This document shows positions 2,278-19,868 of a DNA stretch of 62,982 nucleotides, one piece after another; the stretch's first letter is position 1; every line of letters starts with the position of its first letter. The stretch is from Methylophilus sp. 14 (GTDB taxonomy: Bacteria > Pseudomonadota > Gammaproteobacteria > Burkholderiales > Methylophilaceae). Under the pieces are notes generated by a model. That model was given only the letters and a program-made list of their open reading frames with translations. It searched no databases and was not told the origin of the DNA. The position numbers and the translations under genes are program-made. The stretch is taken from assembly GCF_015354345.1 (NCBI RefSeq), contig NZ_JADKYS010000009.1, forward strand, positions 1 to 62,982, in the 5' to 3' direction.

Positions 2278-2688
2278 TTAGAACAATGACAGGTTGCGAG
2301 CCTGCACGTTATTTTTAACCACTCTTCTACGCAGCAGTTTTTTTACGGGCGTGTCTGCCGTTGGCAGGTCTTCATCAAACAGGGATTGCTGTGCTGGGAA
2401 CATATCGTCTTGCATCTGCGCGGTTTGCAAGTCGAAGCGGAGTTCGCAGTCTAGCCATAAATCGGATTTTGGCACGCAGCAGCATGGGAGAATTTCATCG
2501 GCGGCGATAAAGGCGAGTGGCAGTTCAACGTAATCGACTTCGCCATCGAGCATACGCACGCGGCAGGCACCACAAAAACCGCTCCGGCATTGATACTCTA
2601 CTTCGTGGCCGGTGCGTTCGAGGCCTTCGAGCAGGGTTTCTTGCGGGAGCAGGCTAAAGCGGCTGTGCTGGCTGCGGATGCTAATCAC
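2278..2688 (-). CDS. yfaE: 2Fe-2S ferredoxin of class Ia ribonucleotide reductase (YfaE-like)
   Basis: A plant-type [2Fe-2S] ferredoxin. The cluster cysteines are visible in YQCRSGFCGACRVRML and again in ILPCCCVP. It begins 22 bases after the nrdB stop with a GTG start, the usual place of YfaE, which maintains or rebuilds the diferric-tyrosyl cofactor of NrdB. YfaE proteins are about 84 residues; this one has 136 because of a charged tail of about 50 residues with no cluster motif (acidic LFDEDLPTAD, then basic KKLLRRRVVKNN). The tail is open coding sequence and may mediate docking. It is the last gene of the nrdA-nrdB-ferredoxin operon. Confidence 0.88.
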   Translation of the reverse strand: MISIRSQHSRFSLLPQETLLEGLERTGHEVEYQCRSGFCGACRVRMLDGEVDYVELPLAFIAADEILPCCCVPKSDLWLDCELRFDLQTAQMQDDMFPAQQSLFDEDLPTADTPVKKLLRRRVVKNNVQARNLSLF

Positions 2689-2710: not shown

Positions 2711-3844
2711 TTATAACTCAAAGCCGTTCAAATCATCTGCCGAAACTTCAGAATCAATTTGACCAATCAGGTAAGAGCTTAATTCCACCTCTTGCGGCGC
2801 GACTTGCACCGTATCTGAGGCCAGCCAGGTGTTGATCCATGGAATCGGGTTGTTTTTGGCATTGGGGAATGCCGGTGGCAAGCCGACTGAGGCCATACGG
2901 GTGTTGGTGATGTATTCCACGTATTGGCAAAGAATGTCTTTGTTCAAGCCAATCATGGAGCCATCTTTAAACAGGTATTCTGCCCATTCTTTTTCTTGCT
3001 CGGCGGCGGTTTTAAACATCTCAAAACATTCGGTGTGCAACTCGGCGGCGATCTCGGCAAACTCGGGGTCATCTTGCCCGGAGCGCATGATGTTGAGAAT
3101 GTGCTGGGTGCCGGTGAGGTGCAGGGCTTCGTCACGCGCAATCAGGCGGATGATTTTGGCGTTGCCTTCCATCACCTTGCGCTCGGCAAAGGCGAACGAG
3201 CAGGCGAAGCTGACATAAAAGCGGATGGCTTCGAGGATGTTCACGTTCATCAGGCAGCGATACAGCAGCTTTTTGAGCTCGCGCTTGTTGACTGAGATGG
3301 TTTCGCTATTGATGACGTGATCGCCCTCGCCCAGTTGCGAATACAACATGGTTTGATGGATCAGTTCGTCGTAATAATGGGCGATATCCGAGGCACGTGC
3401 GGTGATGTTGTCATTGCGCACGATGTCATCAAAAATGATAGAAGGATCATTGACGATGTTGCGGATGATGTGAGTGTAAGAGCGCGAGTGGATCGTCTCG
3501 GAAAACGCCCAGGTTTCAATCCAGGTTTCCAGCTCGGGCAGTGACACCAATGGCAACAAGGCAACGTTAGGGCTGCGGCCCTGGATGGAATCCAGCAACG
3601 TCTGGTACTTGAGGTTGCTGATGAAAATATGCTTTTCATGCTCAGGCAGGCCCTGGTAGTCAGCACGGTCTTGTGACACATCGACCTCTTCCGGGCGCCA
3701 GAAGAATGACAGTTGTTTCTCGATCAGCTTCTCGAACACCGGATATTTCTGCTGGTCATAGCGCGCCACGTTGACGGGCTGACCGAAGAACATGGGTTCT
3801 TTTAACTGTTCGTTGTCGATTTTGGTAAAGATGCTGTAGGCCAT
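2711..3844 (-). CDS. nrdB: ribonucleoside-diphosphate reductase beta subunit, class Ia
   Basis: The R2 subunit of aerobic ribonucleotide reductase, which houses the diiron-tyrosyl radical that starts reduction of ribonucleotides to deoxyribonucleotides. The 377 residues track E. coli NrdB closely. Iron ligands are visible as Asp85 (TLLDSIQ), Glu116 and His119 ([11 protein letters not shown]), a Glu in [10 protein letters not shown], and Glu/His in [12 protein letters not shown]; the radical Tyr is Tyr123. The C-terminal tail that docks to NrdA is present ([11 protein letters not shown]). It is preceded by AGGAAC. It is separated from nrdA by 210 bases containing a long imperfect palindrome, which could set different levels of the two subunits. 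Confidence 0.97.
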
Positions 3845-3911: not shown

Positions 3912-4056
3912 AATAAGCGTTTAATCAGTGAGCGAGCGGGATAAAGTGCAAGGCGTCAGGAGCACAGAAACCGGAATGTACATGGAGTACATGAGGATTT
4001 CGAGCACCGCTCAACGTTGCAATTTGCCCGCGCAGCCACTGAGTCAACGCTTATTT
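3912..4056. repeat. long imperfect palindrome in the nrdA-nrdB intergenic region
   Basis: The outer ends AATAAGCGTT (3912-3921) and AACGCTTATT (4045-4054) are perfect inverted copies. Inward, TCAGTG/CACTGA, GCGGG/CCCGC and TGCAA/TTGCA pair again, and the centre is ATGTAC-ATGGA-GTACAT (3976-3992). In total about 65 bases per arm can fold as a long mismatched hairpin. It occupies nearly the whole gap and is transcribed with the operon. It resembles mobile intergenic palindromic repeats seen in proteobacteria, but no second copy is visible in this window. Confidence 0.7.
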
Positions 4057-6334
4057 AAATCTTGCAGGCGCCACTGGCACAACCATCATCTTCCGCCTCA
4101 GTGCCACCTTCTGTCGCACCATCGCGGGTGTTGTGGTAGTACAAGGTTTTGATGCCCAGTTTGTACACTTGCAACAAGTCTTTGAGCAGCTGCTTCATCG
4201 GCACTCGGCCGCCTTCAAAACGCGTCGGGTCGTAGTTGGTGTTGGCAGAAATAGACTGGTCAACAAACTTTTGCATAATGCCCACCAGCTTGAGATAACC
4301 CTCATTGCTAGGCATTTTCCACAGCAACTGGTACTGGTCACGCAGGCGGTCAATCTCTGGCACCACCTGGCGCAAGATACCGTCTTTGGACTGTTTGACA
4401 GACACCAGGCCGCGCGGTGGTTCGATACCATTGGTGGCGTTGGCTATCTGGCTGGACGTCTCGGATGGCATCAATGCTGTCAGCGTAGAGTTACGCAGGC
4501 CATCTTTCTGGATGTCGGCACGCAGGCTTTCCCAGTCCAGCAACAATGGCTCGCTGCAAACGGCGTCGAGGTCTTTTTTGTAGGTATCAATCGGCAAAAT
4601 ACCTTTGGCATACGTGGTTTCGTTAAACGCACCGCATGGACCAAATTCGCGTGATAACTGCACTGAGGCCTTTAGCAGGTAATACTGAATCGCCTCAAAC
4701 GTGCGGTGGGTCAGACCCAAGGCCGCGTCGCTGGTGTAATTGGTGCCATTTTTGGCCAGGTAGTAAGCGTAGTTAATCACACCCACGCCCAAAGAACGGC
4801 GCTTGTTGGTGGCGTTAAGAGCGGCTTTGACCGGGTAATCCTGATATTCCAGCAAGGCATCCAGCGCACGCACCACCAAATCAGCCAGGCCTTCAAGCTC
4901 GTCTAATGACTCTAGCGCGCCCAGGTTAAAGGCAGACAAAGTACACAAGGCGATTTCGCCTTCTTCATCATTGATGTCGTTCAATGGATGGGTCGGCAGT
5001 GCAATTTCCATACACAGGTTGGACTGGCGCACAGGTGCAACGGCCGGGTCAAACGGGCTGTGTGTGTTGCAGTGGTCGACGTTCTGGATGTAGATACGGC
5101 CGGTGCCTGCGCGCTCTTGCATCACCAGCGAGAACAGGTCTACGGCTGGCAAGCTACGCTTGCGGATGCTGTCATCGGCTTCGTATTGCGCATAGAGGCG
5201 CTCGAATTCGTCCTGGTCGGCAAAGAAGGCATCGTACAAGCCTGGTACATCGTGTGGGGAGAACAAGGTGATGTTCTGGCCTTTAATCAGGCGCTGATAC
5301 ATCAGGCGGTTGATCTGCACGCCGTAATCGAGGTGGCGTACACGGTTCTCTTCCACACCACGGTTGTTTTTGAGCACCAGCAGTGACTCAACCTCCAAAT
5401 GCCACAGTGGGTAGAACAAGGTGGCTGCACCACCGCGCACGCCGCCCTGTGAGCAAGACTTCACTGCAGACTGGAACAATTTGTAGAACGGCAGGCAGCC
5501 AGTGTGTTGTGCTTCACCACCACGGATTTCACTGCCTAGGGCGCGGATGCGGCCCGCATTGACGCCGATACCGGCACGCTGTGACACGTATTTCACAATG
5601 GCGCTGGATGTGGCGTTGATGCTATCCAGGCTGTCATCACACTCAATCAGCACGCAGGAGCTGAACTGGCGCGTAGGCGTACGCACACCAGACATGATAG
5701 GTGTAGGCAACGAAATCTTGAAAGTAGACACTGCATCATAGAAGCGCTTGATCAGATCCAGTCTTGTCTGCCCTTTGTAATTGGCAAACAGGCTCATGGC
5801 CACCAGGATGTACAGGAACTGCGGGCTCTCGTAGATTTTCTTGGTAACGCGGTTCTGCACCAGGTATTTACCCTCAAGCTGCTTCACAGCAGCGTAAGAG
5901 AAATTCATATCGCGCCAGTGGTCCAGGTGGCTATTTAACGCATCAAACTCTTCACGGCTGTAATCGCGCAGCAGATGCGGGTCATATTTGCCCAGTTCGG
6001 TCAGCGTCGTTACGTGGTCAAACAAATGTGGCGGCTCAAACTGGCCATAAGCGATTTTGCGTAGGTGAAAAATAGATAAACGCGCAGCCAGGTACTGGTA
6101 GTCAGGCGTTTCTTCAGAAATCAAGTCAGCGGCTGACTTGATGATGGTTTCATGAATGTCGTCAGTACGAATGCCATCGTAAAACTGGATATGGGAGCGC
6201 AACTCTACCTGCGACACCGACACATTATTCAGGCCTTGTGCGGCCCAGTCGATCACGCGGTGAATTTTGTCGAGATTAATCGGTTCCTTGCGACCATCCC
6301 GTTTTGTGGCCTGCATGGATTCGTATTGTGACAT
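4055..6334 (-). CDS. nrdA: ribonucleoside-diphosphate reductase alpha subunit, class Ia
   Basis: The catalytic R1 subunit. I place the start at 6334 (MSQYESMQATKRDG...), giving 759 residues against 761 in E. coli; the frame is open 56 codons further upstream, but that stretch is riboswitch leader. An ATP-cone allosteric domain occupies the first 90 residues. Active-site residues are visible: Cys227 (SSCVLIECDD), Cys441 and Glu443 (NLCMEIALP), Cys464 (IALCTLSAFN), and the C-terminal shuttle cysteines 752 and 757 in CASGACKI. It is first in the nrdA-nrdB-ferredoxin operon and is preceded by a cobalamin riboswitch at 6522-6713. This implies shut-off of the class Ia enzyme when B12 is available. 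Confidence 0.97.
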   Translation of the reverse strand: MSQYESMQATKRDGRKEPINLDKIHRVIDWAAQGLNNVSVSQVELRSHIQFYDGIRTDDIHETIIKSAADLISEETPDYQYLAARLSIFHLRKIAYGQFEPPHLFDHVTTLTELGKYDPHLLRDYSREEFDALNSHLDHWRDMNFSYAAVKQLEGKYLVQNRVTKKIYESPQFLYILVAMSLFANYKGQTRLDLIKRFYDAVSTFKISLPTPIMSGVRTPTRQFSSCVLIECDDSLDSINATSSAIVKYVSQRAGIGVNAGRIRALGSEIRGGEAQHTGCLPFYKLFQSAVKSCSQGGVRGGAATLFYPLWHLEVESLLVLKNNRGVEENRVRHLDYGVQINRLMYQRLIKGQNITLFSPHDVPGLYDAFFADQDEFERLYAQYEADDSIRKRSLPAVDLFSLVMQERAGTGRIYIQNVDHCNTHSPFDPAVAPVRQSNLCMEIALPTHPLNDINDEEGEIALCTLSAFNLGALESLDELEGLADLVVRALDALLEYQDYPVKAALNATNKRRSLGVGVINYAYYLAKNGTNYTSDAALGLTHRTFEAIQYYLLKASVQLSREFGPCGAFNETTYAKGILPIDTYKKDLDAVCSEPLLLDWESLRADIQKDGLRNSTLTALMPSETSSQIANATNGIEPPRGLVSVKQSKDGILRQVVPEIDRLRDQYQLLWKMPSNEGYLKLVGIMQKFVDQSISANTNYDPTRFEGGRVPMKQLLKDLLQVYKLGIKTLYYHNTRDGATEGGTEAEDDGCASGACKI

Positions 6335-6521
6335 TAATGGCTCCCAATCATGGCAGCGAAGGTGGCATGGCACAGGCTTTTCGCAACGCGCATCCCGCCC
6401 CGGGCAAACCCAGGACCGCAGAAAATGCACCCGCTTAAAGGCCAGACGAGCAATCAGCACAAAACTTGGCTCACTGCATCTGCCGAGGACACCCCGCCTC
6501 AAACGTTAACAAGAAAAAACT
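6335..6521 (-). other. nrdA leader, riboswitch expression platform
   Basis: The stretch between aptamer and nrdA contains no separate gene. The nrdA frame is open through it, but translation is expected only from 6334. A T run directly follows the aptamer (AAGTTTTTTCTTG), and GC-rich inverted repeats lie closer to the start codon. Either transcription termination right after the aptamer or sequestration of the GGGAG ribosome binding site at about 6342 could be the output. I cannot decide between them by eye. Confidence 0.5.
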
Positions 6522-6713
6522 TACGGTAGGTCTCCTGGCTCTCAGGTCACCATTATTTGCTTTGCCTTCCCGAATTTATCAGTGGCGTTGTTAACAGCAA
6601 ATAACTCGCTGATCACAGTTGCGGGGGCAGCTCTGGCTTGATGAGGACTGCGCCGTCTTCACGCACCAGATTCCCTTTTAAATACAGAAGAAGACTGTCT
6701 TCTGCATACCGTA
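6522..6713 (-). ncRNA. cobalamin (AdoCbl) riboswitch upstream of nrdA
   Basis: Read leftward, the RNA contains the conserved blocks of the cobalamin aptamer in order: GGGAAUCUGGUGC, GCCAGAGCUGCCCCCGCAAC, UGUGAUC, GCCACUGA, GGGAAGGC, and the B12 box GAGCCAGGAGACCUACCG. The ends pair as P1: TACGGTA from 6713 down to 6707 with TACCGTA from 6528 down to 6522. It points at nrdA, whose start is 188 bases downstream. That leader contains GC-rich hairpins (for example CCTGGGTTTGCCCGGG) that may form the expression platform. In this class, cobalamin binding turns expression off. Confidence 0.93.
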
Positions 6714-6965
6714 TGGATGCGACTATAAAACAATATCTATGGCTTTTCAATTATCAAAAACACAATATATTGATTTATTTACCTTGACAGTGAGCAACTG
6801 ATTGTTTTTATTCAAGAATATTTTTACAACCATACTGCACAACTTCAAGGAGTGATATGCCGTCTCCTATCGTGATAAAAAAGCTATTTTCACGTCGTAA
6901 TCATTAGGACACAGTGGTAACGAATTATGCGACACTAGGCATAACGAATAAAAACCAAATCCGTC

Positions 6966-9506: not shown

Positions 9507-11915
9507 TTACCAATGATAATTAAGTTGTGCCATGACGTTTCGGCGGAAGCCCCAGCGGCAACCGTCACCGTAGTAACCGCAGTTGGAAACATATTCCTTA
9601 TCGAACAGGTTGCTGGCATTGACGGCAAACTGCCAACCTTTCCAACCTTCACCGAGTTGGGTCAGGTCATAGCGCACGGCCAGGTCAACGAGGGTATAAG
9701 ACGGCATGCGGATGGTATTGGCATCATCGCCATAGCGGCTGCCGATATAACGCACACCGCCACCCAGCGTCATCCCCTGCAACAAAGCAGTGGGAAAGCG
9801 GTAATCCACCCACATGGAAGCCGTATGGTGTGGCACATGGTTAGGATCTTTGCCTTCAAGGGCAATCCCTTGTGCGTTGCGGTTATTGCTTTTGGTGATC
9901 TCCGGCAGAAGGTAGGTATAGCTGCCAATGACAGACCAGGCATCCCATTGCGTTTTGGCTTCTAGCTCCAGCCCGCGTGAACGCACTTCACCCTGCTGAA
10001 TCTGGAAAGTAGGGTTCTGGATGTCTTGTGTCGTTACGTTTTGCCTGCGCAAATCAAACAATGCTGCGGTATAGAGCGTCTGGCTGTCTTTGGGCTGAAA
10101 GCGTAAGCCCAGCTCATATTGTTTACCTGTTTCCGGCTTGAATGCCGAGCCAGCAAAGGTCGTGCCTATTACTGGCAAAAAGGATTCTGTATAACTCGCA
10201 TAAGGCGAGAAACCATTGTCGGCCAGGTAAACCAGTCCGGCTCGCCAGGTTTCGGCCTCATCCTTTTGGGAAGCAGAGGCCGATGGCGTGCGCAGGTTAT
10301 CAGTCTCCATGCGCGTCCAGTCTTTACGGCCACCCAGCGTCGCTACCCACTTGCCGTCATATTTCACCTGGTCCTGCACATACAGGCCGGTCTGGCGCTG
10401 GCGTTGTTCAATATTGGCACTTTCAAGCAGATTAATCGCTGTTTGCCCATAGACAGGCGCATAAATGTCCAGTGTGCCCGCCAGGGCAAAAGTGCGGCGC
10501 TGGTCATTATTCAGGCGCTGGCTATCAAGCCCGGCAACCATCGTATGCTCAAAGTTACCATGCGACCATTTGGCTTGCACATGGCTGTCAACGACTAAGT
10601 TCTCAACTTCTTCCTCGTTGCCACCCGCCTCGCGGGTAATCGTGCGCTGGTCAGCTTGCAAGGCACGTAAATAGGTAGAAATCGCATCGGTGGCCATGCG
10701 CTGGTAGCGCAGATTTTGGCGGAAGGTGAAAGTCTGGTTAAAGATATGCTCAAACTGGTAGCCCAGGGAGTAACGTTCCTGCTCGTATTTATCGAGGCCG
10801 GGCTCGCCGAGGAAGGTGCTGCTAGACACTTTGCCAAAGCGGCTATTGACCAGCGTGCCGACACGCGGCCATGCCTGGTAGCCTTGGCCGCGGTCATTTT
10901 TCTGGTAATCAGACAGCAAGGTCAATGTTGTGAAATCACTCGGACGCCAGGTCAATGATGGCGCGATGTAAATGCGGTCATCCTTGACATGGTCGATCTG
11001 GGTATCGCTGTCCTGCACCAGCCCGGCGACACGATAAGACCAGGTGCCATCCGCGGTCAGATAGTCACTGAAGTCGGCATTGATCTGCTTGCGGTCGTAT
11101 TGCCCAAGCACTACCCCCACTTCATGCAATGGCTTATCCGTGGGGCGCTTGCTCACCAGATTCACGATACCGCCAGGCGCACCCTGGCCGTAGAGGATGG
11201 AAGAAGGTCCACGCAGGACTTCTACCCGCTCTAGGCCAAACGGCTCAACCACAGTGCCACCCTGGTTACTGAAGGCATAATTGCGCAAGCCATCGCGATA
11301 CTGGTCGCGGCCTATGCTAAAACCGCGCACGCCTATGGTATCTGCACGCGGATCAGGCCCGTTAGACTCTGCAACAATGCCCGCGCTATATCGCAAGGCC
11401 TCACCAACGGACTGCACCGCCTGCATGGTCATCTGGTCGCGTGTCACCACTGATATCGACTGTGGCGCTTCAAGAATATCGCTATCAGTTTTGGTGGCTG
11501 TGATATTGCGTTTGGCCACATAGCCTTTGAGCTTGGCATTGGCACGTTCCTGCTCCGTACGACCAGCCACGCTGACTTCAGGCATCATTTGCGGCTCGGC
11601 ATGGCTCTGCTCAGGCAGGGGCGATACTTTCATCATCGTATAGCCACCGCCTGGCGTCGCTTTCAATTCCAGGCCGCTGCCATGCAATAGCTTGTCCAAT
11701 GCCTGGCGCACGCTGTAATCACCCTTGATTGCGGGCGACTGCTTACGCTCGGTCAACTCCGTGGAGAAAATAATACGCTCCCCTGTTTGATGCGCTAATG
11801 CGTTGAGCGCCTTATCTAGCGGCTGCGAAGGGATATCCAGCTCAACAGCATGGACGGTGATTGAAAGACCAGTCAGCACTAAGGCCAGCAGTAGAGGTTT
11901 ACATGTGTGTGACAT
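9507..11915 (-). CDS. TonB-dependent siderophore receptor with STN signalling domain
   Basis: An 802-residue outer membrane receptor. Residues 1-23 are a signal peptide (ending VHA). Residues about 25-98 are an STN domain (ELDIPSQPLDKALNALAHQTG), which signals to a FecR-type anti-sigma factor. A plug with TATKTDSDILEAPQSISVV, EVLRGPSSILYGQGAPGGIVNLVSKRP follows, then a 22-stranded barrel ending in NYHW. The plug sequence is that of ferric siderophore receptors (FpvA/FhuE type). A PepSY protein follows in the same unit. Upstream lie two FecIR pairs that could control it. Ligand unknown. Confidence 0.9.
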   Translation of the reverse strand: MSHTCKPLLLALVLTGLSITVHAVELDIPSQPLDKALNALAHQTGERIIFSTELTERKQSPAIKGDYSVRQALDKLLHGSGLELKATPGGGYTMMKVSPLPEQSHAEPQMMPEVSVAGRTEQERANAKLKGYVAKRNITATKTDSDILEAPQSISVVTRDQMTMQAVQSVGEALRYSAGIVAESNGPDPRADTIGVRGFSIGRDQYRDGLRNYAFSNQGGTVVEPFGLERVEVLRGPSSILYGQGAPGGIVNLVSKRPTDKPLHEVGVVLGQYDRKQINADFSDYLTADGTWSYRVAGLVQDSDTQIDHVKDDRIYIAPSLTWRPSDFTTLTLLSDYQKNDRGQGYQAWPRVGTLVNSRFGKVSSSTFLGEPGLDKYEQERYSLGYQFEHIFNQTFTFRQNLRYQRMATDAISTYLRALQADQRTITREAGGNEEEVENLVVDSHVQAKWSHGNFEHTMVAGLDSQRLNNDQRRTFALAGTLDIYAPVYGQTAINLLESANIEQRQRQTGLYVQDQVKYDGKWVATLGGRKDWTRMETDNLRTPSASASQKDEAETWRAGLVYLADNGFSPYASYTESFLPVIGTTFAGSAFKPETGKQYELGLRFQPKDSQTLYTAALFDLRRQNVTTQDIQNPTFQIQQGEVRSRGLELEAKTQWDAWSVIGSYTYLLPEITKSNNRNAQGIALEGKDPNHVPHHTASMWVDYRFPTALLQGMTLGGGVRYIGSRYGDDANTIRMPSYTLVDLAVRYDLTQLGEGWKGWQFAVNASNLFDKEYVSNCGYYGDGCRWGFRRNVMAQLNYHW

Positions 11916-12018
11916 CTTTTTCCCAGTGATTTATATACGTTTATACTGGTATGTCGTTTGGTCACGAGTTGATGTTGATGTCTGGGCTAAAAAATTATTC
12001 AACTAAGGTTGCCAAGCA

Positions 12019-12050
12019 CACACTACCTGTCTGGGCTGACTGGTAGTGTG
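12019..12050 (-). terminator. hairpin between the two TonB receptor genes
   Basis: CACACTACC (12019-12027) and GGTAGTGTG (12042-12050) are a perfect 9-bp inverted repeat with a 14-base loop. It lies directly behind the stop of the receptor at 12065-14434 in the direction of transcription. No tight T run follows, so it may be a weak terminator or an mRNA-stabilising hairpin that separates expression of the two receptors. Confidence 0.5.
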
Positions 12051-12064
12051 CATAGTCATATACG

Positions 12065-14434
12065 CTAAATCTCTAATTTGAGCGCCACTCCAAACAAACG
12101 TGGCGCGCCAACATCCAGCACATCACCACTACTATTATTGGTGACGTACTCGCGGTCAAACAGGTTACGCACAAAAGCGTTGAGCGTCGTACGTGGATTT
12201 AAACGATAGGTCGCATTGGCATTCACCAGCACTACGCTGTCGTTGCGTCTGGTTTCTGTGAGCAGATACACGGAAGGGCTGCTATCCTGGTAAACCGTGT
12301 CTACATTGAACAGCCACTGATTGCCTAAGTGATAATTCACACCCAGGTTCACTTTTGTTCTTGGCGCCATAATGAACTGTTTACCGCGCATATTGAGGCC
12401 ATCACTGTTGATAAAGTCCAGATACTCGGTATGGTTGTAGGCGGCACCGGCAATCACTTGCCAGTCACTATTGATCGCATACTCAGCCGAGGCTTCCAGG
12501 CCGCGCATGCGACTTCTGGCGGCGTTGGAAATATATAGCCGATTCAAGCTATCCCGCTGGCGAACCTGCTGGTCTTTCCAATCGGTGTAGTAGACGTTGG
12601 CAAATGTTTTCAGGCCGTATTCTGGCCAGCTACCGCGGTAAGAAAACTCGTAGGTAGTGGTGAATTCCGCGTCATATGGTCGGTGATCGGATGGCACCCG
12701 CATATTAATACCACCGCCACGATAACCGCGTTGCACCACAAAGCCAGTACGCTGGGTAGGCGACCAGATATAGTTAATGCCCGCTTTGGGCAGCAAGGCG
12801 CCAAAAGTTTTTTTGTCATCCGCCTGGCTGACAGGTGAAAGTGAGAAGGTATCCAGCACATAATCTACTTTGGCTTCATTTTTCTCACGGTCATAACGCA
12901 AACCGGCAATGGCCTGCCAATGCGCATCCAAATCCCAGTTCACTTCACCAAAGATCGCTTGGTTACGTATCTGGCTTCTGCCATCCGCCATCAATACCGA
13001 CCCGAATCCCACGACGCCCAAAGTATCATTAAACTTGATTCTCGAAGAGCCATAATAGAAGCCAGCATGTGCTTTCACGGCATCCCCTTGGTATGTGGCG
13101 CGAAACTCCTGGCTAAATAATCTGGTTTGATGGTGGCGATTGGCTTCTTCGCTATCTACGGCGCCCTGATCAAAATCCAGCAAGCTTTGGTAGTTCGCAT
13201 TGGTCCCCGAAGAAATACTGGTTAACGCCCATGACTTATTGAGCTGATGTGTCAGCTTTAGCGTTGCCTCGTTTTGCTGTATAGCATCAAAAGCATCGGT
13301 GTTCTGGTTCAACTTGTAATATTGCGGCTGGTTATTGAGTTGCGTCACGCCATTGCTACCGGCGTGGTAATCGGTGTGCGATAAGGTCAGCAAAGCCTCT
13401 GTGTTATCCCCAGCCAATAACAACAATTTGCCACGTGCATTGATAGAGCGGCGCGGGTCAGCATTGTTATCCAGCACACGGTTTTTAATATAACCATCTT
13501 CATTTTGCACATTCAAGGCAAAGCGGCCTGCCAACACCTCTGGCACTAATACCGCATTGGCGGCAAGCGCCCCACCCTGCTGGTAATAGTTGCCAAGGTT
13601 GCCTTGCAAGGTCAGTGTATTTTTAAACTCGGGATCATTGGTTTGCATAATCACCGCACCCGCCAATGCGTTGCGGCCTTGCACCGTCGATTGCGCACCG
13701 CGGTACACTTCCACCTGTTTCATATCCCAGGTTGAAAGCGGGCTCATGGTCACCATACTGCTGGTTTGCAACGCGCCATCCACAAACACTGACACCGCAT
13801 TGTTGAGCGACAGCGGCCCCTGGTCATCAAAGCCTGTCACCGGCACGCCACGGATGCCCCAGGTTTCATTACGTGACTGCGTATATACACCAGGCGTGCG
13901 CGCCATGATGTCAGATAGCGACTGATCGCCATGGGTACGAATATCCTGGGCGGTAGCGACAGCCACACTAGAGTAAGTTTCACTGAGTTTACGCGTGATT
14001 TTTTCACCCTGCACCGTCACTTCTGGCAAGGTATCCACGGACTCATGAGGGCTGGTCGTGGCTGCAGCAGAACTGCTGACTTTCGCGCTCTTCTTTAACG
14101 AATATTGCTGGCCACCCTTGTCATCCAGCGCAAAATCACTGCCCTTGAGCAAAGTTTCGAATCCCTCATTGACGCTGTAATACCCTTGCAGGCCGTCACT
14201 TTTCAAGTTGGCAACCAATGCGGGGGCAAACGACAGCCGTGTGCCAGTCAATGCAGCAAACTCCGCCAGCACATGACCCAAGGGGCCTGGGGCGAGTTGA
14301 TAACGCTGTTTCTCGGCGACGGCTTTGGGGCTATCCGCCATCACCAGCGACGGGCTGGCCGCCAAGATAAAGCCGCACAAAGCAACACGCAGTGCGCTCT
14401 GCAACGGAGTAAGTTTAAAAACGGAAGAGGTCAT
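12065..14434 (-). CDS. TonB-dependent receptor with STN signalling domain
   Basis: A 789-residue TonB receptor. It has a signal peptide (to about residue 34, VMADS), then an STN domain (YQLAPGPLGHVLAEFAALTGTRLSF, to about residue 108). A plug with PEVTVQGEKITRKLSETYSS and VEVYRGAQSTVQGRNALAGAV follows, then a barrel ending FGVALKLEI. The plug lacks the QSISVV-type siderophore signature of its neighbour, so the ligand may differ. The STN domain makes it the likely partner of the FecR/FecI pair whose last gene ends 105 bases upstream. A short inverted repeat (14463-14488) lies in the promoter gap. Confidence 0.88.
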   Translation of the reverse strand: MTSSVFKLTPLQSALRVALCGFILAASPSLVMADSPKAVAEKQRYQLAPGPLGHVLAEFAALTGTRLSFAPALVANLKSDGLQGYYSVNEGFETLLKGSDFALDDKGGQQYSLKKSAKVSSSAAATTSPHESVDTLPEVTVQGEKITRKLSETYSSVAVATAQDIRTHGDQSLSDIMARTPGVYTQSRNETWGIRGVPVTGFDDQGPLSLNNAVSVFVDGALQTSSMVTMSPLSTWDMKQVEVYRGAQSTVQGRNALAGAVIMQTNDPEFKNTLTLQGNLGNYYQQGGALAANAVLVPEVLAGRFALNVQNEDGYIKNRVLDNNADPRRSINARGKLLLLAGDNTEALLTLSHTDYHAGSNGVTQLNNQPQYYKLNQNTDAFDAIQQNEATLKLTHQLNKSWALTSISSGTNANYQSLLDFDQGAVDSEEANRHHQTRLFSQEFRATYQGDAVKAHAGFYYGSSRIKFNDTLGVVGFGSVLMADGRSQIRNQAIFGEVNWDLDAHWQAIAGLRYDREKNEAKVDYVLDTFSLSPVSQADDKKTFGALLPKAGINYIWSPTQRTGFVVQRGYRGGGINMRVPSDHRPYDAEFTTTYEFSYRGSWPEYGLKTFANVYYTDWKDQQVRQRDSLNRLYISNAARSRMRGLEASAEYAINSDWQVIAGAAYNHTEYLDFINSDGLNMRGKQFIMAPRTKVNLGVNYHLGNQWLFNVDTVYQDSSPSVYLLTETRRNDSVVLVNANATYRLNPRTTLNAFVRNLFDREYVTNNSSGDVLDVGAPRLFGVALKLEI

Positions 14435-14538
14435 TGCCTGAGAGCTTTCTTAAGTATCAATAATGAAATGGCCTGAGAACGGCCTTCATCATGTACACCG
14501 GACGAACGCTAAAAAAGTATCAGGGTAAACAACATTTT

Positions 14539-15525
14539 TTATCCTGCGGCAGATGCAGGTTCAATCATGATCCAGTAGCGGCTAGGCGCGACGACTTTTA
14601 CCGGTAAGGTTTTTTGCAGCAAATCGAGTGCTGCATCGGTATTATTGACAGGAAATGCACCCGACACCGTCATGCGCTGCAGGTCTGGATGGCAGCGAAT
14701 CACACCATGACGGTAGCGCGCCAGCTCTTTGAGCAAATCATTGAGTGGCATGTCCTGCGCCAGCAACATGCCCTGCTGCCAATATCCCACGCGCTGATCA
14801 GCCAGCCGCGTTTGCTCGAAGGCATCGTTGGCAAATGCGCGCTGCTGCCCGGCTTGCACCACGGTGCTTTGACCATTGCGGAGGTCAATCCGGACCGCGC
14901 CCTCAGTGACTGCCAGCGTGGTGCGCTCTGCACTCAACCTGACATTAAAGCGCGTGCCCAATGGCACCAGTTGCCCGTGCGGCGTCGTCACAACCAATGG
15001 GCGCTGATCCTGATGCCCGGTTTCCAGCCAGATTTCCCCCTGGCGCAACATAATCTGGCGCTGGGCGTGATATTGCACATCGACAGCTGAATCCGTATTC
15101 AAGACCAGCCGCGTACCATCGCCCAATTGCAGGTGTTTTTGCTCACCGACAGCCGTCTGGTATTCAGCCTGCAAACGCACCAGTGGTAATGCACGGTAAC
15201 CCAGCCAGGCAGTGGGCAGTAAGATGGCTAGTGTGCCCAACTTTTTCAGCGCGTTGCGACGGGATGCCGGGTCTATACTTGTGAGCACTTGCTTAGCAAA
15301 ATGTTTGTGCGGCACTTGAGCAAAGGTGTGCTGTATTTGCGTCAGGCGTGACCAGGCCGCTGCATGCTGCGGATGGCTAGCCAACCAGTGTTCAAATGCC
15401 CCCAGCGTAGCCGCCGTTGGTTGCTCGGATTGCAGTTTAAGCAGCCAGTCTACTGCTTGCTCCAGTGAGGACTGATCCTGCATGTGTGTGGAATGGGTGC
15501 CGGGCGACATCATAAACTCAAGCAT
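14539..15525 (-). CDS. FecR-family anti-sigma factor
   Basis: A 328-residue FecR-like inner membrane regulator. The N-terminal cytoplasmic part carries the DUF4880-type stretch AVDWLLKLQSEQPTAATLGAFEHWLASHPQHAAAW. One membrane segment follows near residues 94-112 (LGTLAILLPTAWLGY), then the periplasmic FecR domain (TAVGEQKHLQLGDGTRLVLNTDSAVDV) and a C-terminal STN-like region. It overlaps the sigma factor gene by 16 bases (start at 15525 inside the sigma stop region), so translation is coupled. In the family, FecR receives the signal from the STN domain of a loaded TonB receptor and activates its sigma factor. Confidence 0.9.
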   Translation of the reverse strand: MLEFMMSPGTHSTHMQDQSSLEQAVDWLLKLQSEQPTAATLGAFEHWLASHPQHAAAWSRLTQIQHTFAQVPHKHFAKQVLTSIDPASRRNALKKLGTLAILLPTAWLGYRALPLVRLQAEYQTAVGEQKHLQLGDGTRLVLNTDSAVDVQYHAQRQIMLRQGEIWLETGHQDQRPLVVTTPHGQLVPLGTRFNVRLSAERTTLAVTEGAVRIDLRNGQSTVVQAGQQRAFANDAFEQTRLADQRVGYWQQGMLLAQDMPLNDLLKELARYRHGVIRCHPDLQRMTVSGAFPVNNTDAALDLLQKTLPVKVVAPSRYWIMIEPASAAG

Positions 15526-16010
15526 GCCAGGTACGCTTTACGCATATGACGCTTGACGGTAATTAATGATAGGCCGAGCTGGTCGGCAATGTGTTGATAG
15601 GTCAAGCCATCTAATTGCGCCAGCAAAAAAATAGCACGGGTTTGCGCAGGCATGTTCTGTAATAGCCGATCAATCTGCTGTAGCGATTCTAAAATCAAAT
15701 GCTGCTCCTCTACCGAGGGGCACAGGTCTGCTGGCAGTTGCGCCAGCGTTTCATGATAAGCACGCTCGACTTGCTGGTGGCGCCAGTGATCAATCACCAG
15801 CCCTTTGGCAATATGCACCAGCAACGCCCTGGGCTCTGCCGCCAACTGTGCCAGCTTGTCTTTATGCATCACACGCACAAACGTGTCATGCGCAATGTCG
15901 GCGGCATCCCAGCTGTTGCCGGTTTTTTTGCGCAACCAGCCTTGTAGCCAGTCGTGATGCTGGCAATAGACCTCATGCAGTTGCTGCCAACGCACATTTA
16001 GCGAAGCCAT
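15510..16010 (-). CDS. ECF sigma factor, FecI-like
   Basis: An extracytoplasmic-function sigma-70 factor. I choose the ATG at 16010 (MASLNVRWQQL, 166 residues) because GGAGAGGAAGG lies just upstream; the frame extends to a TTG at 16061. Region 2 reads WDAADIAHDTFVRVM, and region 4 reads QTRAIFLLAQLDGLTYQHIADQLGLSLITVKRHMRKA, a clear -35-binding helix-turn-helix. The match to FecI is good throughout. It is the second sigma gene in the block and is followed at once by its own FecR. Target promoter is probably that of one of the TonB receptors downstream. Confidence 0.92.
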   Translation of the reverse strand: MASLNVRWQQLHEVYCQHHDWLQGWLRKKTGNSWDAADIAHDTFVRVMHKDKLAQLAAEPRALLVHIAKGLVIDHWRHQQVERAYHETLAQLPADLCPSVEEQHLILESLQQIDRLLQNMPAQTRAIFLLAQLDGLTYQHIADQLGLSLITVKRHMRKAYLACLSL

Positions 16011-16041
16011 GACACCTTCCTCTCCATGAGCCTGGTCATGG

Positions 16042-16893
16042 TTAACGATGCCTGATCTCAACAGACTGGTCTGCGCGATGCTCTACATGCACAGGTAGTA
16101 TGTCTGGCAACACATCAATCAAGGCATCAATGCCGCGAATGTCATACTCCCCAGACAACGGGTACTGCCCTATGCGCTTATCCTTGATGACAATCTGCCC
16201 AGCACGGTAACGCTGCAACTCTGCTATCACCTCATTCAGAGGCGTGGCATCAAACATCAGCCTGCCCTGCTGCCAGGCTGTCGCAGCCTCTGCCGACACC
16301 TCGCGTGGCAAAGATAAACGTCCCTCGCCGGAACTCACGGTCTGGTTACAAGTCAGGCGCTGGGTCGCCGCAGCGGTCACCACCTCGACCATGCCTTTGA
16401 CCACGGTGACATCTGCCCCCTGAGCCGTGTTGCGCACATTGAAAATGGTACCGATATCGCGGATTTCGGTATGGTAGGCATACACCGTAAACGGGCGCCA
16501 GGCATGCTTCACGCTAAACAAGGCCTCGCCTTGCTGCAGCCTGAGTTGCCGTGAATACACATGCTGCTCTACCACCAGCATGCTATTGGTATTCAGTGTG
16601 ACCTGGCTGCCATCCTTTAAGTCAAAGCTGGCTTGCTGGCCAACGGCTGTTTGCAATGACTCCCGCTGCAAGACAGGATCCATATACCAGCTCATGGCAA
16701 ACAGCAGGCACATGGCCACACCAGCCGCCACTTTCTTCAAACCGCGCTGCCGCTGCGTTTGCTGCCTGGCCTCACGCAAAATCTCTTCGCGTGATGGAAA
16801 ATGCGCACGCAAGGCTTGCGCAAAAGGACTCAAAGAATCTTGCCCAGCCAATGGCGGCGGCGAAGCTATTTTGTTATGAGAAATATGTTTCAT
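16042..16893 (-). CDS. FecR-family anti-sigma factor
   Basis: Its ATG overlaps the stop of the preceding sigma gene as ATGA (16890-16893), with GGGGGA upstream; the frame also opens 5 codons earlier at a GTG, less likely used. The product has 283 residues, with one membrane helix at about residues 52-70 (VAAGVAMCLLFAMSWYM). A periplasmic FecR domain follows (ESLQTAVGQQASFDLKDGSQVTLN, FTVYAYHTEIRDIGTIFNV) and a C-terminal STN-like tail. The cytoplasmic N-terminal DUF4880-type motif seen in the other FecR is reduced here. It forms a pair with the sigma factor at 16890-17372. Confidence 0.88.
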   Translation of the reverse strand: MKHISHNKIASPPPLAGQDSLSPFAQALRAHFPSREEILREARQQTQRQRGLKKVAAGVAMCLLFAMSWYMDPVLQRESLQTAVGQQASFDLKDGSQVTLNTNSMLVVEQHVYSRQLRLQQGEALFSVKHAWRPFTVYAYHTEIRDIGTIFNVRNTAQGADVTVVKGMVEVVTAAATQRLTCNQTVSSGEGRLSLPREVSAEAATAWQQGRLMFDATPLNEVIAELQRYRAGQIVIKDKRIGQYPLSGEYDIRGIDALIDVLPDILPVHVEHRADQSVEIRHR

Positions 16894-17579: not shown

Positions 17580-19868
17580 TCAAGCTGCGCGCAATACCTT
17601 GGCAGCCGCCACCATATTGGTCAATGCTGGCAACACCTCAGCCCACTGCCTGGTTTTCAAGCCGCAATCCGGGTTCACCCACAAACGCTCTGCCGGAATC
17701 CGCTCGGCCGCTTTTTGCATCAACTGCACAATATGTTGCTGCGTCGGAATATTCGGCGAGTGAATATCATATACGCCAGGCCCGATCTCGTTCGGATAGT
17801 TAAAGTCATCAAACGCATCCAGCAGTTCCATATCAGAGCGTGACGTCTCTATCGTAATCACGTCGGCATCCATATCGGCAATCGCGGCAATAATGTCGTT
17901 AAACTCGGAATAACACATGTGGGTATGAATTTGTGTTTCGTCCTGCACACCGTTAGCCGTGATGCGGAAAGATTCCACTGCCCATTGCAGATATTCCTTC
18001 CATTGCGATTTACGCAAAGGCAAGCCCTCACGCAAAGCGGCTTCATCAATCTGGATCACGTGAATGCCTGCTTTTTCCAAATCCAGCACTTCTTCACGAA
18101 TCGCTAATGCCAACTGGTAGCAACTCACCGCACGTGGCTGATCATCGCGAACAAATGACCAGTTGAGTATGGTCACCGGGCCTGTCAACATGCCTTTCAT
18201 CGGTTTGCCAGTGAGGGATTGCGCATACTTGATCCACTCCACCGTCATTGCTTGTGGACGGCTGATATCGCCAAACAGGATAGGCGGTTTAACGCAACGC
18301 GAGCCATAAGACTGCACCCAGCCAAACTGGCTGAAGGCATAGCCATCCAGCTGCTCACCAAAGTATTCCACCATGTCGTTACGCTCGGCTTCACCATGCA
18401 CCAATACATCCAGGCCCAGTGACTCCTGCTCACGCACGCTGCGCTCAATTTCCGTTTTCATGACCTGCTCATAACCCGCCAGGTTCAATGCCCCGGCCTT
18501 GAACTGGCTGCGCGCCTGGCGAATCTCAGCCGTTTGTGGGAAAGAACCGATGGTCGTCGTTGGATACTTGGGCAACTTGAGCAATGCCGCCTGTTTCGCT
18601 GCACGTTGCGCATACGTATTCTGGCGCTGCCCCAGTTGCGGCGTCAGTGTTGCCAGCGCGGCTTTCACCTGCGGATTATGCACACGTTTAGAGGCGCGGC
18701 GGGCGTCAATCGCCACCTGGTTGACTGCCAAGGCTACTTTCACTGCAGCGCGACCGTGATTCAATGCCCTCGCCAACACCTGTAACTCTTCCAGCTTTTG
18801 TTTGGCAAAGGCCAGCCATGACTTCACCTCGGCATCCAGTTTGACTTCGCTGTCGAGATCCACTGGCACATGCAACAACGAGCACGAAGGCGCCAGCCAC
18901 AAGCGATCACCCAAACGTTCGGCAATCGGCTCCAGCCAATCCAGCGTGGCATTCAAATCTGTTTTCCAGATATTGCGGCCGTTAATCACCCCCACAGACA
19001 GCACTTTGTGCGCAGGCAGCATGCTGAGCAAAGGCACGACTTCACTGCGCGCATTAATCGCATCCACATGCAATCCGGCGACGGGCAGATTAGCCGCCAG
19101 GTATTGGTTATCCGCCAACGGGCCAAAATAAGTCGCCAACAGCAATTTGACGCGGCAGCTCTTCAACTGGTGATAAGCCAGGTTAAACGCATGCTGCCAT
19201 TCGGCCGTCAGTTCAGTCACCAAAATCGGCTCGTCAATCTGCACCCATTCCACGCCCTGCGCAGCCAGTGTTTCCAGTAACTCTGTATACACCTGCAACA
19301 ACTGCGGCAGCAACGCCAGGCGATCAGAATCATCTTTGCTTTTGCCTATCGCCAGATAAGTCACCGGGCCGATAATCACCGGCTTGGCTTTCACCTGCTG
19401 CGCTTTCGCTTCAGCCAGTTGTGCCAGCAAACGCGTCGCATCCAGTTTAAATTGCGTCTCCGCCGTAAACTCTGGCACGATGTAGTGGTAGTTGGTATCA
19501 AACCACTTAGTCATCTCCCCCGCCGCCACGCCGCCACAACACTGCGCATGCGCTTCATCAGACTCAGCAGAGCGGCCACGCGCCACACGGAAATAGTTAT
19601 CCAGCGCATCACCATGAAAATCTTGCACGCGCGCTGGCAAGTTACCCAGGGTAAAACTCATGTCCAGCACCTGGTCATAAAATGCAAAATCACCGACTGG
19701 TGTGAAATCCAGGTTAGCTTGCAACGCCCAATTGTCACGGCGCAAATCTTGCCCCACCTGCTTTAATGCATCCAGTGAAGACTGCCCTTTCCAATAAGCC
19801 TCTAAAGCAAATTTCAATTCGCGTTTTGCGCCTATGCGCGGAAATCCCAGATTGTGTATCGTCGCCAT
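17580..19868 (-). CDS. metE: cobalamin-independent methionine synthase
   Basis: Transfers the methyl group of 5-methyltetrahydropteroyl-glutamate to homocysteine to form methionine, in the cytoplasm and without B12. The start is set at 19868 ([19 protein letters not shown]), giving 762 residues; the frame opens 11 codons earlier. Zinc and homocysteine site residues are visible as His650 and Cys652 in HTHMCYSEF and Cys735 in NPDCGLKTR. The metR regulator is divergent, 108 bases away. Unlike nrdA in this window, metE has no cobalamin riboswitch, so its control appears to be by MetR. It ends in a rho-independent terminator at 17526-17550. Confidence 0.97.

What the first reader, a model, noticed from the sequence alone, without database searches (positions are those of the whole stretch)
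6522..6713. Cobalamin riboswitch controls the class Ia ribonucleotide reductase operon
The aptamer has all conserved blocks, including the B12 box and a closing P1 stem, and points at nrdA. A B12 riboswitch on a B12-independent RNR makes sense only if the cell also has a B12-dependent (class II, NrdJ) RNR, so the window predicts a second RNR elsewhere. Such control is known for nrdAB in Streptomyces; in this betaproteobacterial setting it is at least uncommon.
Basis: partly seen in the sequence, partly recalled or inferred. Interest (0 to 1): 0.75.

Follow-up and report, generated by a model that had tools for sequence, protein, structure and literature searches.

The report
B12 riboswitch on backup ribonucleotide reductase
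In this methanol-eating Methylophilus bacterium, an RNA switch that senses vitamin B12 sits in front of the genes for a B12-free DNA-building-block enzyme, so the cell probably makes that backup enzyme only when its B12-needing version cannot work.

Summary
A complete cobalamin riboswitch aptamer lies at 6508-6728 on the minus strand (RF00174, 109.4 bits, E 1.6e-26), in the leader of nrdA-nrdB-yfaE (class Ia RNR). In a sample of 120 Methylophilaceae genomes, 45 of the 46 printed class I nrdA rows carry this riboswitch. The exception, G043, shows no NrdJ and keeps only a decayed leader: promoter region and ribosome-binding site conserved, aptamer eroded. Two dissimilar nrdA types share the riboswitch and the P13 hairpin, which suggests that nrdA was exchanged under a resident riboswitch; the tree test does not prove this (p-AU 0.111). 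In a sample of the order, 1 of 30 outside-family genomes with both RNR classes has it. B12 repression of class I RNR is known elsewhere, so this is a new member of a known kind. No expression was measured; the ribosome-site switch is weakly supported in this species.

The parts
6508..6728 (-). Cobalamin riboswitch aptamer (RF00174), complete
   Evidence: cmscan 109.4 bits, E 1.6e-26; same bit score in the whole-genome search
6621..6626 (-). L5 loop, CCCCGC, complementary to L13
   Evidence: sequence; found in 18 of 18 type B leaders
6529..6539 (-). B12 box GCCAGGAGACC
   Evidence: sequence, cmscan alignment
6482..6504 (-). P13/L13 hairpin GUUUGAGGCGGGGUGUCCUCGGC; loop GCGGGG can kiss L5
   Evidence: found in 18 of 18 type B leaders, with small variants in G016, G053, G093 and G010, and in 15 of 15 type A leaders aligned (12 further type A leaders were not aligned)
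6340..6357 (-). Predicted SD hairpin: anti-SD GCUGCC (6357-6352) with SD GGGAGC (6345-6340), one G.G mismatch
   Evidence: sequence; SD at least 3 of 5 bases paired in the local MFE in 33 of 33 leaders, little better than shuffles
6722..6750 (-). Sigma-70-like promoter TTGAAA-17-TATAGT just upstream of the aptamer
   Evidence: scan, 10 of 12 matches; 3 promoter-like sites in 6250-6850 against 0.8 expected; TATAGT invariant in the 18 aligned type B leaders
6760..6775 (-). NrdR-like box AATCAATATATTGTGT; a weaker second box (11 of 16) 30 bp downstream
   Evidence: 2 mismatches to a consensus typed from recall; one palindromic place, counted twice, against 1.89 expected by chance; a box of 11-14 of 16 in each of 33 leaders, no shuffled control; NrdR encoded in the genome
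4055..6334 (-). nrdA, class Ia RNR alpha subunit, 759 aa
   Evidence: NF006578, 1506.5 bits, cut-off 813
2711..3844 (-). nrdB, class Ia RNR beta subunit
   Evidence: NF006576, 731.6 bits, cut-off 346
2278..2688 (-). yfaE-like ferredoxin (class I RNR maintenance)
   Evidence: NF007985, 99.4 bits, cut-off 75
17586..19850 (-). metE, B12-independent methionine synthase, same strand, about 11 kb upstream of nrdA; directly next to nrdA's riboswitch in several relatives; no riboswitch of its own
   Evidence: TIGR01371, 1106 bits; only one RF00174 hit in the window; gene order

Best explanation
A repressing cobalamin (adenosylcobalamin-class) riboswitch that makes the class Ia RNR (nrdAB-yfaE) a fallback. 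With cobamide present, the aptamer binds it, L5 (CCCCGC) pairs with L13 (GCGGGG), P13 is held closed, the anti-SD downstream stays free to pair with the SD, and nrdA is translated little; the cell relies on the B12-dependent NrdJ. Without cobamide, P13 is not held, its GAGGCGGGG strand can pair with the C-rich anti-SD region, the SD opens and NrdAB is made. Transcription from the leader promoter may also be repressed by NrdR. Shown by sequence: aptamer, operon, NrdJ, L5-L13 complementarity, conservation, and decay of the aptamer where NrdJ is absent. Inferred: ligand binding, sign of control, NrdR binding. Least certain step: how P13 is coupled to nrdA expression in this species.
For: RF00174 109.4 bits; class Ia nrdAB-yfaE downstream, NrdJ elsewhere; BtuB-like receptors, then CobA/BtuR, CobB, BluB and CobU over their cut-offs, behind the only other riboswitch; no CobJ/CbiH match over cut-off, so cobamide supply is likely external; 45 of 46 printed class I nrdA rows in the family sample carry the switch; the exception has no NrdJ and keeps 55 of 58 invariant positions 5' of the aptamer and 26 of 29 around the SD, but 37 of 90 in the aptamer and 15 of 22 in P13, while each of four relatives, left out in turn, keeps 90 of 93 to 90 of 116 aptamer positions; P13/L13 in both nrdA types; SD more exposed in the unbound than in the bound fold in 16 of 18 type B leaders, mean 0.29 against 0.19; P13 to anti-SD pairing better than shuffled in 9 of 18 type B leaders; no intrinsic terminator found. 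The same coupling (kissing loop, P13, RBS hairpin) is described for E. coli btuB and env8HyCbl in passages of PMC10653944.
Against: No expression or binding data. In the window itself the P13 to anti-SD pairing is no better than shuffled (p 0.77) or than the leader's own spacer (17 of 84 stretches pair as well or better), the SD hairpin has a G.G mismatch, and SD exposure barely differs (0.24 against 0.21). In type A leaders only 1 of 15 reaches p 0.05. SD hairpins are only slightly more stable than shuffles (mean z -0.40 in B, -1.44 in A). In the order sample 29 of 30 outside-family genomes with both RNR classes do without such a switch, so having NrdJ does not by itself call for it.
Confidence: 0.85

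Rival explanations
1. Same riboswitch and same logic, but the output is transcription termination (Rho-dependent or at a non-canonical terminator) rather than ribosome-site occlusion.
For: The leader is long (about 380 nt from the inferred start) and P13 lies 113-172 nt upstream of the SD with a variable spacer; the window's own SD switch is weakly supported. In P. acnes much nrdAB transcription appears to end before the gene (passages of PMC3848588), and the Streptomyces nrdABS riboswitch is said to regulate transcription (passages of PMC4991794).
Against: No intrinsic-terminator-like site in 6250-6850. GGGAG is invariant in the 18 aligned type B leaders and, by eye, the stretch just before it is more alike than the spacer.
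Confidence: 0.3
2. The aptamer is a relic: B12 no longer controls nrdAB in this strain.
For: Weak expression-platform support in the window; a relic of this kind does exist in G043.
Against: The aptamer scores 109.4 bits, third highest of the 18 type B aptamers, with intact L5, B12 box and L13; nrdJ is an open frame over its family cut-off. The G043 relic shows that the element decays visibly once it is not needed.
Confidence: 0.07
3. The switch activates nrdAB when cobamide is bound.
For: An activating corrinoid riboswitch is reported for A. halodurans cobT (passages of PMC10653944).
Against: The controlled genes encode a B12-independent isozyme of an enzyme present in the same genome; the known cases of that kind are read as repressing (passages of PMC3848588, PMC545781, PMC4991794).
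Confidence: 0.04

Closest known systems
Streptomyces coelicolor nrdABS cobalamin riboswitch (Borovok et al. 2006, not read; described in passages of PMC4991794)
   Same: B12 riboswitch in front of a class Ia RNR operon in an organism with class II NrdJ
   Different: Actinobacterium; third gene nrdS instead of yfaE; said to act on transcription; cobalamin synthesis genes named there
Propionibacterium acnes nrdAB and nrdDG cobalamin riboswitches (PMC3848588; passages seen)
   Same: Cobalamin riboswitch plus nrd-box at the nrdAB promoter, with a cobalamin-dependent NrdJ
   Different: Actinobacterium; early termination seen in RNA-seq; a single nrd-box reported at nrdAB; riboswitch also on nrdDG
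Delta-proteobacterial nrdDG B12 elements (PMC545781; passages seen)
   Same: B12-independent RNR preceded by a B12 element where NrdJ is present
   Different: Class III RNR, another lineage
E. coli btuB and env8HyCbl translational cobalamin riboswitches (described in passages of PMC10653944)
   Same: L5-L13 kissing loop that holds P13 and favours an RBS hairpin
   Different: Other genes; here P13 lies about 160 nt from the SD

Membership tests
Cobalamin riboswitch (RF00174) | Covariance-model score over the gathering cut-off, full length | tested here: met
   109.4 bits against 31.5, positions 1-189 of 189
Cobalamin riboswitch (RF00174) | B12 box, L5 and closing P1 | tested here: met
   6539-6529, 6626-6621, 6713-6709 with 6526-6522
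Cobalamin riboswitch (RF00174) | L13 complementary to L5 in the expression platform | tested here: met
   GCGGGG in P13 at 6497-6492; same in 18 of 18 type B and 15 of 15 type A leaders aligned
Cobalamin riboswitch (RF00174) | Binds a cobamide and changes expression | not testable with these tools
   needs binding or reporter assay
B12-repressed B12-independent RNR isozyme | Class I RNR directly downstream on the same strand | tested here: met
   NF006578, NF006576, NF007985 over cut-off
B12-repressed B12-independent RNR isozyme | B12-dependent class II RNR in the same genome | tested here: met
   TIGR02504 571 bits at C3
Translational (SD-occluding) cobalamin riboswitch | Mutually exclusive P13/anti-SD and anti-SD/SD pairing | tested here: inconclusive
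   9 of 18 type B, 1 of 15 type A leaders at p 0.05 or less; window p 0.77
Transcription-terminating cobalamin riboswitch | Intrinsic terminator in the leader | tested here: not met
   0 terminator-like sites in 6250-6850; Rho-dependent ends not testable here
NrdR regulon member | Two NrdR boxes about three helix turns apart at the promoter, and an NrdR in the genome | tested here: inconclusive
   box 1 scores 14 of 16, box 2 only 11 of 16 at 30 bp (no control); one palindromic place in the window against 1.89 matches by chance; NrdR present

The most novel reading that the evidence does not exclude
The riboswitch outlives the gene it controls. At a locus metR-metE-riboswitch-nrdAB that, from its presence in G159 of another family, may be older than the Methylophilaceae, the original nrdA (about 950 aa) was exchanged more than once for an enteric-type nrdA (759 aa) from a lineage whose examined relatives lack the switch, and the resident riboswitch with its P13 was kept; where NrdJ was then lost, the aptamer decayed within a genus. 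The switch would thus be a property of the chromosomal site and of the cell's B12 economy, not of the gene.
Probability: 0.45. Interest if true: 0.55.

Novelty: new member of a known kind. Interest (0 to 1): 0.4.

Why it matters
It shows a B12 riboswitch on class I RNR as a near-fixed trait of a family of methylotrophs, in a genome that seems to depend on outside cobamide, and gives a natural knock-out (G043) that makes the proposed logic, switch kept only while NrdJ is there, directly testable. It also offers a case for asking whether a riboswitch can be inherited with a locus while its gene is replaced. The mechanism itself is already known from other bacteria.

Tried and rejected
Riboswitch carried in together with the enteric-type nrdA: of the 77 loci outside Methylophilaceae (L010-L086), 20 were given to cmscan and none has a cobalamin hit: L010, L011, L013, L017, L023, L024, L036, L046 and L012, L014, L015, L016, L019, L020, L025, L026, L031, L035, L041, L047. 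The other 57 were not searched. Of 16 such genomes searched for PF02867, 6 (L011, L012, L014, L019, L023, L035) show a second, class II-like large subunit by match pattern only, and all 6 loci lack the switch.

Riboswitch copied from the btuB one: 32 of 39 other aptamers of the family form a separate group (0.997 in FastTree) that holds the window genome's and G057's btuB-side aptamers; gene context was looked at only for those two. Against a clean split: the other 7 (one each from G081, G040, G071, G062, G010, G030, G053; target genes not examined) fall on the nrdA side, next to the nrdA aptamer of G001. The usual btuB-side P13 has another sequence.

One origin of type B aptamers: the tree puts them in three places and 0% of 200 bootstrap trees join them, but the AU test does not reject one clade (p 0.111). 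G010 was left out of both aptamer trees because of its insertion. So gene exchange under a resident switch stays a suggestion. Side evidence: G016's type B NrdA, from the start I chose, begins MDDTTVNTPRQL before HYESMQ; 15 of 15 type A proteins aligned start MDD, the other 17 of 18 type B ones M[S/T][Q/K].

Gene order against a fixed locus: of 10 genomes looked at, metR-like, metE and nrdAB are adjacent in 7 (G048, G059, G053, G043, G016, G011, G159); not in G110 or G001 within the stretch fetched, and in the window metE is about 11 kb off. 'metR' is my label for a LysR-like ORF; G159's is only 32.5% like G053's.

A second riboswitch or terminator in the leader, or a riboswitch on metE: none found.

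Scripts: the first pattern for other aptamers matched none of 28 loci and was widened (one locus, L110, still unmatched).

The class I/II split follows the PF02867 pattern and was checked with TIGR02504. NrdJ over cut-off is printed for 44 of the 45 with a riboswitch; G064 (74% complete) has only a contig-edge fragment. G051, with a second unprinted match, and fragments in G028 and G039 were not counted; G115's 1018-aa class II row was left out of the class I rows. G010's nrdA riboswitch fell in the unprinted tail and was added. Family and order riboswitch scans use stricter Infernal filters. The G043 comparison used 4 of the 5 other g11 genomes with the switch (G010 left out).

Papers: 10 searches. 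'Methylophilus' with riboswitch and ribonucleotide reductase: 0 papers. 'Methylophilaceae' with cobalamin riboswitch: 1, whose passages report one upstream of btuB in an OM43 host (PMC9004378). 'Methylotenera' with riboswitch: 2; PMC12530212 passages concern Methylophaga, PMC3493377 seen in the listing only. Passages also seen in PMC2864759 (Cupriavidus with NrdAB and NrdJ; riboswitch noted at the cob operon), PMC4465626, PMC2211319, PMC3766115, PMC9110341, PMC5962746 (P. aeruginosa nrd genes: B12 effect independent of a B12 riboswitch) and PMC6538847. Rodionov et al. 2003 is not held; that it describes B12 elements on nrdAB is recalled.

Full report
What is there. cmscan finds one RNA family over its cut-off in the 62,982-base window: a full-length cobalamin riboswitch at 6728-6508 on the minus strand, 109.4 bits, E 1.6e-26. 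Downstream on the same strand lie nrdA (4055-6334), nrdB (2711-3844) and a yfaE-like ferredoxin (2278-2688), all over the curated NCBIfam cut-offs for class Ia RNR parts. The nearest named NrdA is that of Methylophilus methylotrophus, 97% identical, so the window is taken to be from Methylophilus.

The predicted partners. The genome (15 contigs, 99.98% complete) has two RNR large subunits over cut-off, NrdA and a class II NrdJ (TIGR02504, 571.1 bits). NrdJ lies on another contig, with one ORF (kdotransferase-like) between it and metH. The genome has two cobalamin riboswitches: this one, and one at C1:73228-73439 before two BtuB-like receptors (best family TIGR01779, 466.5 and 415.2 bits, under its cut-off of 599.7), then CobA/BtuR, CobB, BluB and CobU over their cut-offs and a substrate-binding protein with a sub-cut-off BtuF match. 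CobJ/CbiH has no match over cut-off (best 51.3 bits against 246.35), so making the corrin ring de novo is unlikely. metE is in the window. The cell therefore has both members of two isozyme pairs, MetE/MetH and NrdAB/NrdJ.

Leader anatomy. A sigma-70-like promoter, TTGAAA-17-TATAGT at 6750-6722, would start RNA at the foot of P1. An NrdR-like box (6775-6760) lies upstream; its partner 30 bp on is weak (11 of 16), and one such place in the window is within chance. Boxes of 11-14 of 16 are found in all 33 leaders scored, without a shuffled control; NrdR is encoded. A similar box lies upstream of nrdJ, again within chance for the stretch searched. About 20 nt after the aptamer is a hairpin, GUUUGAGGCGGGGUGUCCUCGGC, nearly unchanged in 18 of 18 type B leaders and 15 of 15 type A leaders aligned (12 of the 27 type A leaders were not aligned). 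Its loop GCGGGG is complementary to L5 CCCCGC, the L5-L13 kissing loop described for this class (passages of PMC10653944). No intrinsic terminator is found. The SD sits in a predicted local hairpin in 33 of 33 leaders, only slightly better than shuffles. Pairing of P13 with the anti-SD beats shuffles in 9 of 18 type B and 1 of 15 type A leaders; in the window it does not (p 0.77). Constrained folding exposes the SD more in the unbound state in 16 of 18 type B leaders (mean 0.29 against 0.19), in the window 0.24 against 0.21. So the sensor and its P13 are well supported; the last step to nrdA is a model.

Family survey. In a sample of 120 Methylophilaceae genomes I paired the printed class I nrdA rows with the printed riboswitch rows: 27 of 27 of the 950-aa type (A) and 17 of 19 of the 760-aa type (B, ours) have a riboswitch upstream on the same strand within 3 kb; G010 was then confirmed at 61.3 bits, giving 18 of 19 and 45 of 46 in all. 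NrdJ over cut-off is printed for 44 of those 45; G064 has a fragment. The exception, G043, is 99% complete and shows no NrdJ (only its own NrdA answers, 7.6e-49). Its leader gives no cobalamin match even at E 10. Against four relatives it keeps 55 of 58 invariant positions 5' of the aptamer and 26 of 29 around the SD, but 37 of 90 in the aptamer and 15 of 22 in P13, with L13 changed to GCAAGG. As a control, each relative left out in turn keeps 90 of 94, 90 of 93, 90 of 106 and 90 of 116 aptamer positions, where G043 keeps 39, 37, 41 and 47. It is one genome, so the link between loss of NrdJ and decay of the switch rests on one event. G057 has NrdJ but no class I nrdA, and its one riboswitch precedes a BtuB-like receptor.

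Outside the family. In a sample of 60 genomes of the order (58 outside the family), 30 outside-family genomes have both a class I row and a separate NrdJ over cut-off; 1 of them, G159, has the riboswitch on nrdA.

Two nrdA types, one switch. The type B NrdA rows of Methylophilaceae in the tree (10 rows) form one group (SH-aLRT 99, quick search) near Comamonas, Alcaligenaceae and Neisseriaceae rows; type A is a longer protein with a different family score (about 630 against 450 bits). Yet metR-like, metE, riboswitch and nrdAB are adjacent with type A (G048, G059, G011, and G159 outside the family) and type B (G053, G016; G043 with the decayed switch), 7 of 10 genomes looked at; not in G110 and G001, and in the window an ECF sigma factor, FecR and TonB-receptor genes lie between metE and nrdA. 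The aptamers of both nrdA types lie on one side of the tree, apart from 32 of 39 other aptamers; 7 others, of unexamined targets, fall on the nrdA side. Among nrdA aptamers type B lies in three places, one (G016) with type A of g18 at 99/97; but one clade is not rejected (p-AU 0.111). G016's type B protein begins with a type A-like MDD start. I take exchange of nrdA under a resident riboswitch as the more likely history, not as shown.

Comparison with what is known. B12 riboswitches on class I nrdAB are known in Streptomyces (passages of PMC4991794) and P. acnes, there also with a nrd-box (passages of PMC3848588), and on nrdDG in delta-proteobacteria (passages of PMC545781). In the held library my searches found no report for Methylophilaceae nrdA; subscription papers are mostly not held. 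The element is a new member of a known kind. What is worth keeping is the conservation across the family, the natural loss in G043, and the possible swap of genes under one switch.

Noticed in passing
   Followed up: partly
G014 (family sample, g15): A 99% complete genome with a cobalamin riboswitch but no PF02867 or TIGR02504 match at all.
   Followed up: no
G115:C1:1576067-1577749: A same-genus genome with a nearly identical nrdA aptamer has a second class II RNR (1018-aa frame, 604.9 bits), unlike the family's usual NrdJ.
   Followed up: no
L184 6838-7935 (G043): metE next to the decayed leader is only 366 aa, about half length.
   Followed up: no
window 9507-16061: ECF sigma factor, FecR and two TonB-receptor genes lie between metE and nrdA and split the order seen in 7 of 10 genomes looked at.
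   Followed up: partly
L005 10677-15325: Three integrase-family ORFs in a row directly downstream of nrdJ, an apparent integrated element next to nrdJ.
   Followed up: partly
L005 8172-8187: NrdR-like box (1 mismatch on one strand) 56 nt before the first listed start of the nrdJ ORF; one palindromic place against 0.96 matches by chance.
   Followed up: no
L087, L088, L090, L091, L092, L101, L201: Seven other aptamers with an nrdA-like L5 flank group with the nrdA aptamers; their target genes were not examined.
   Followed up: no
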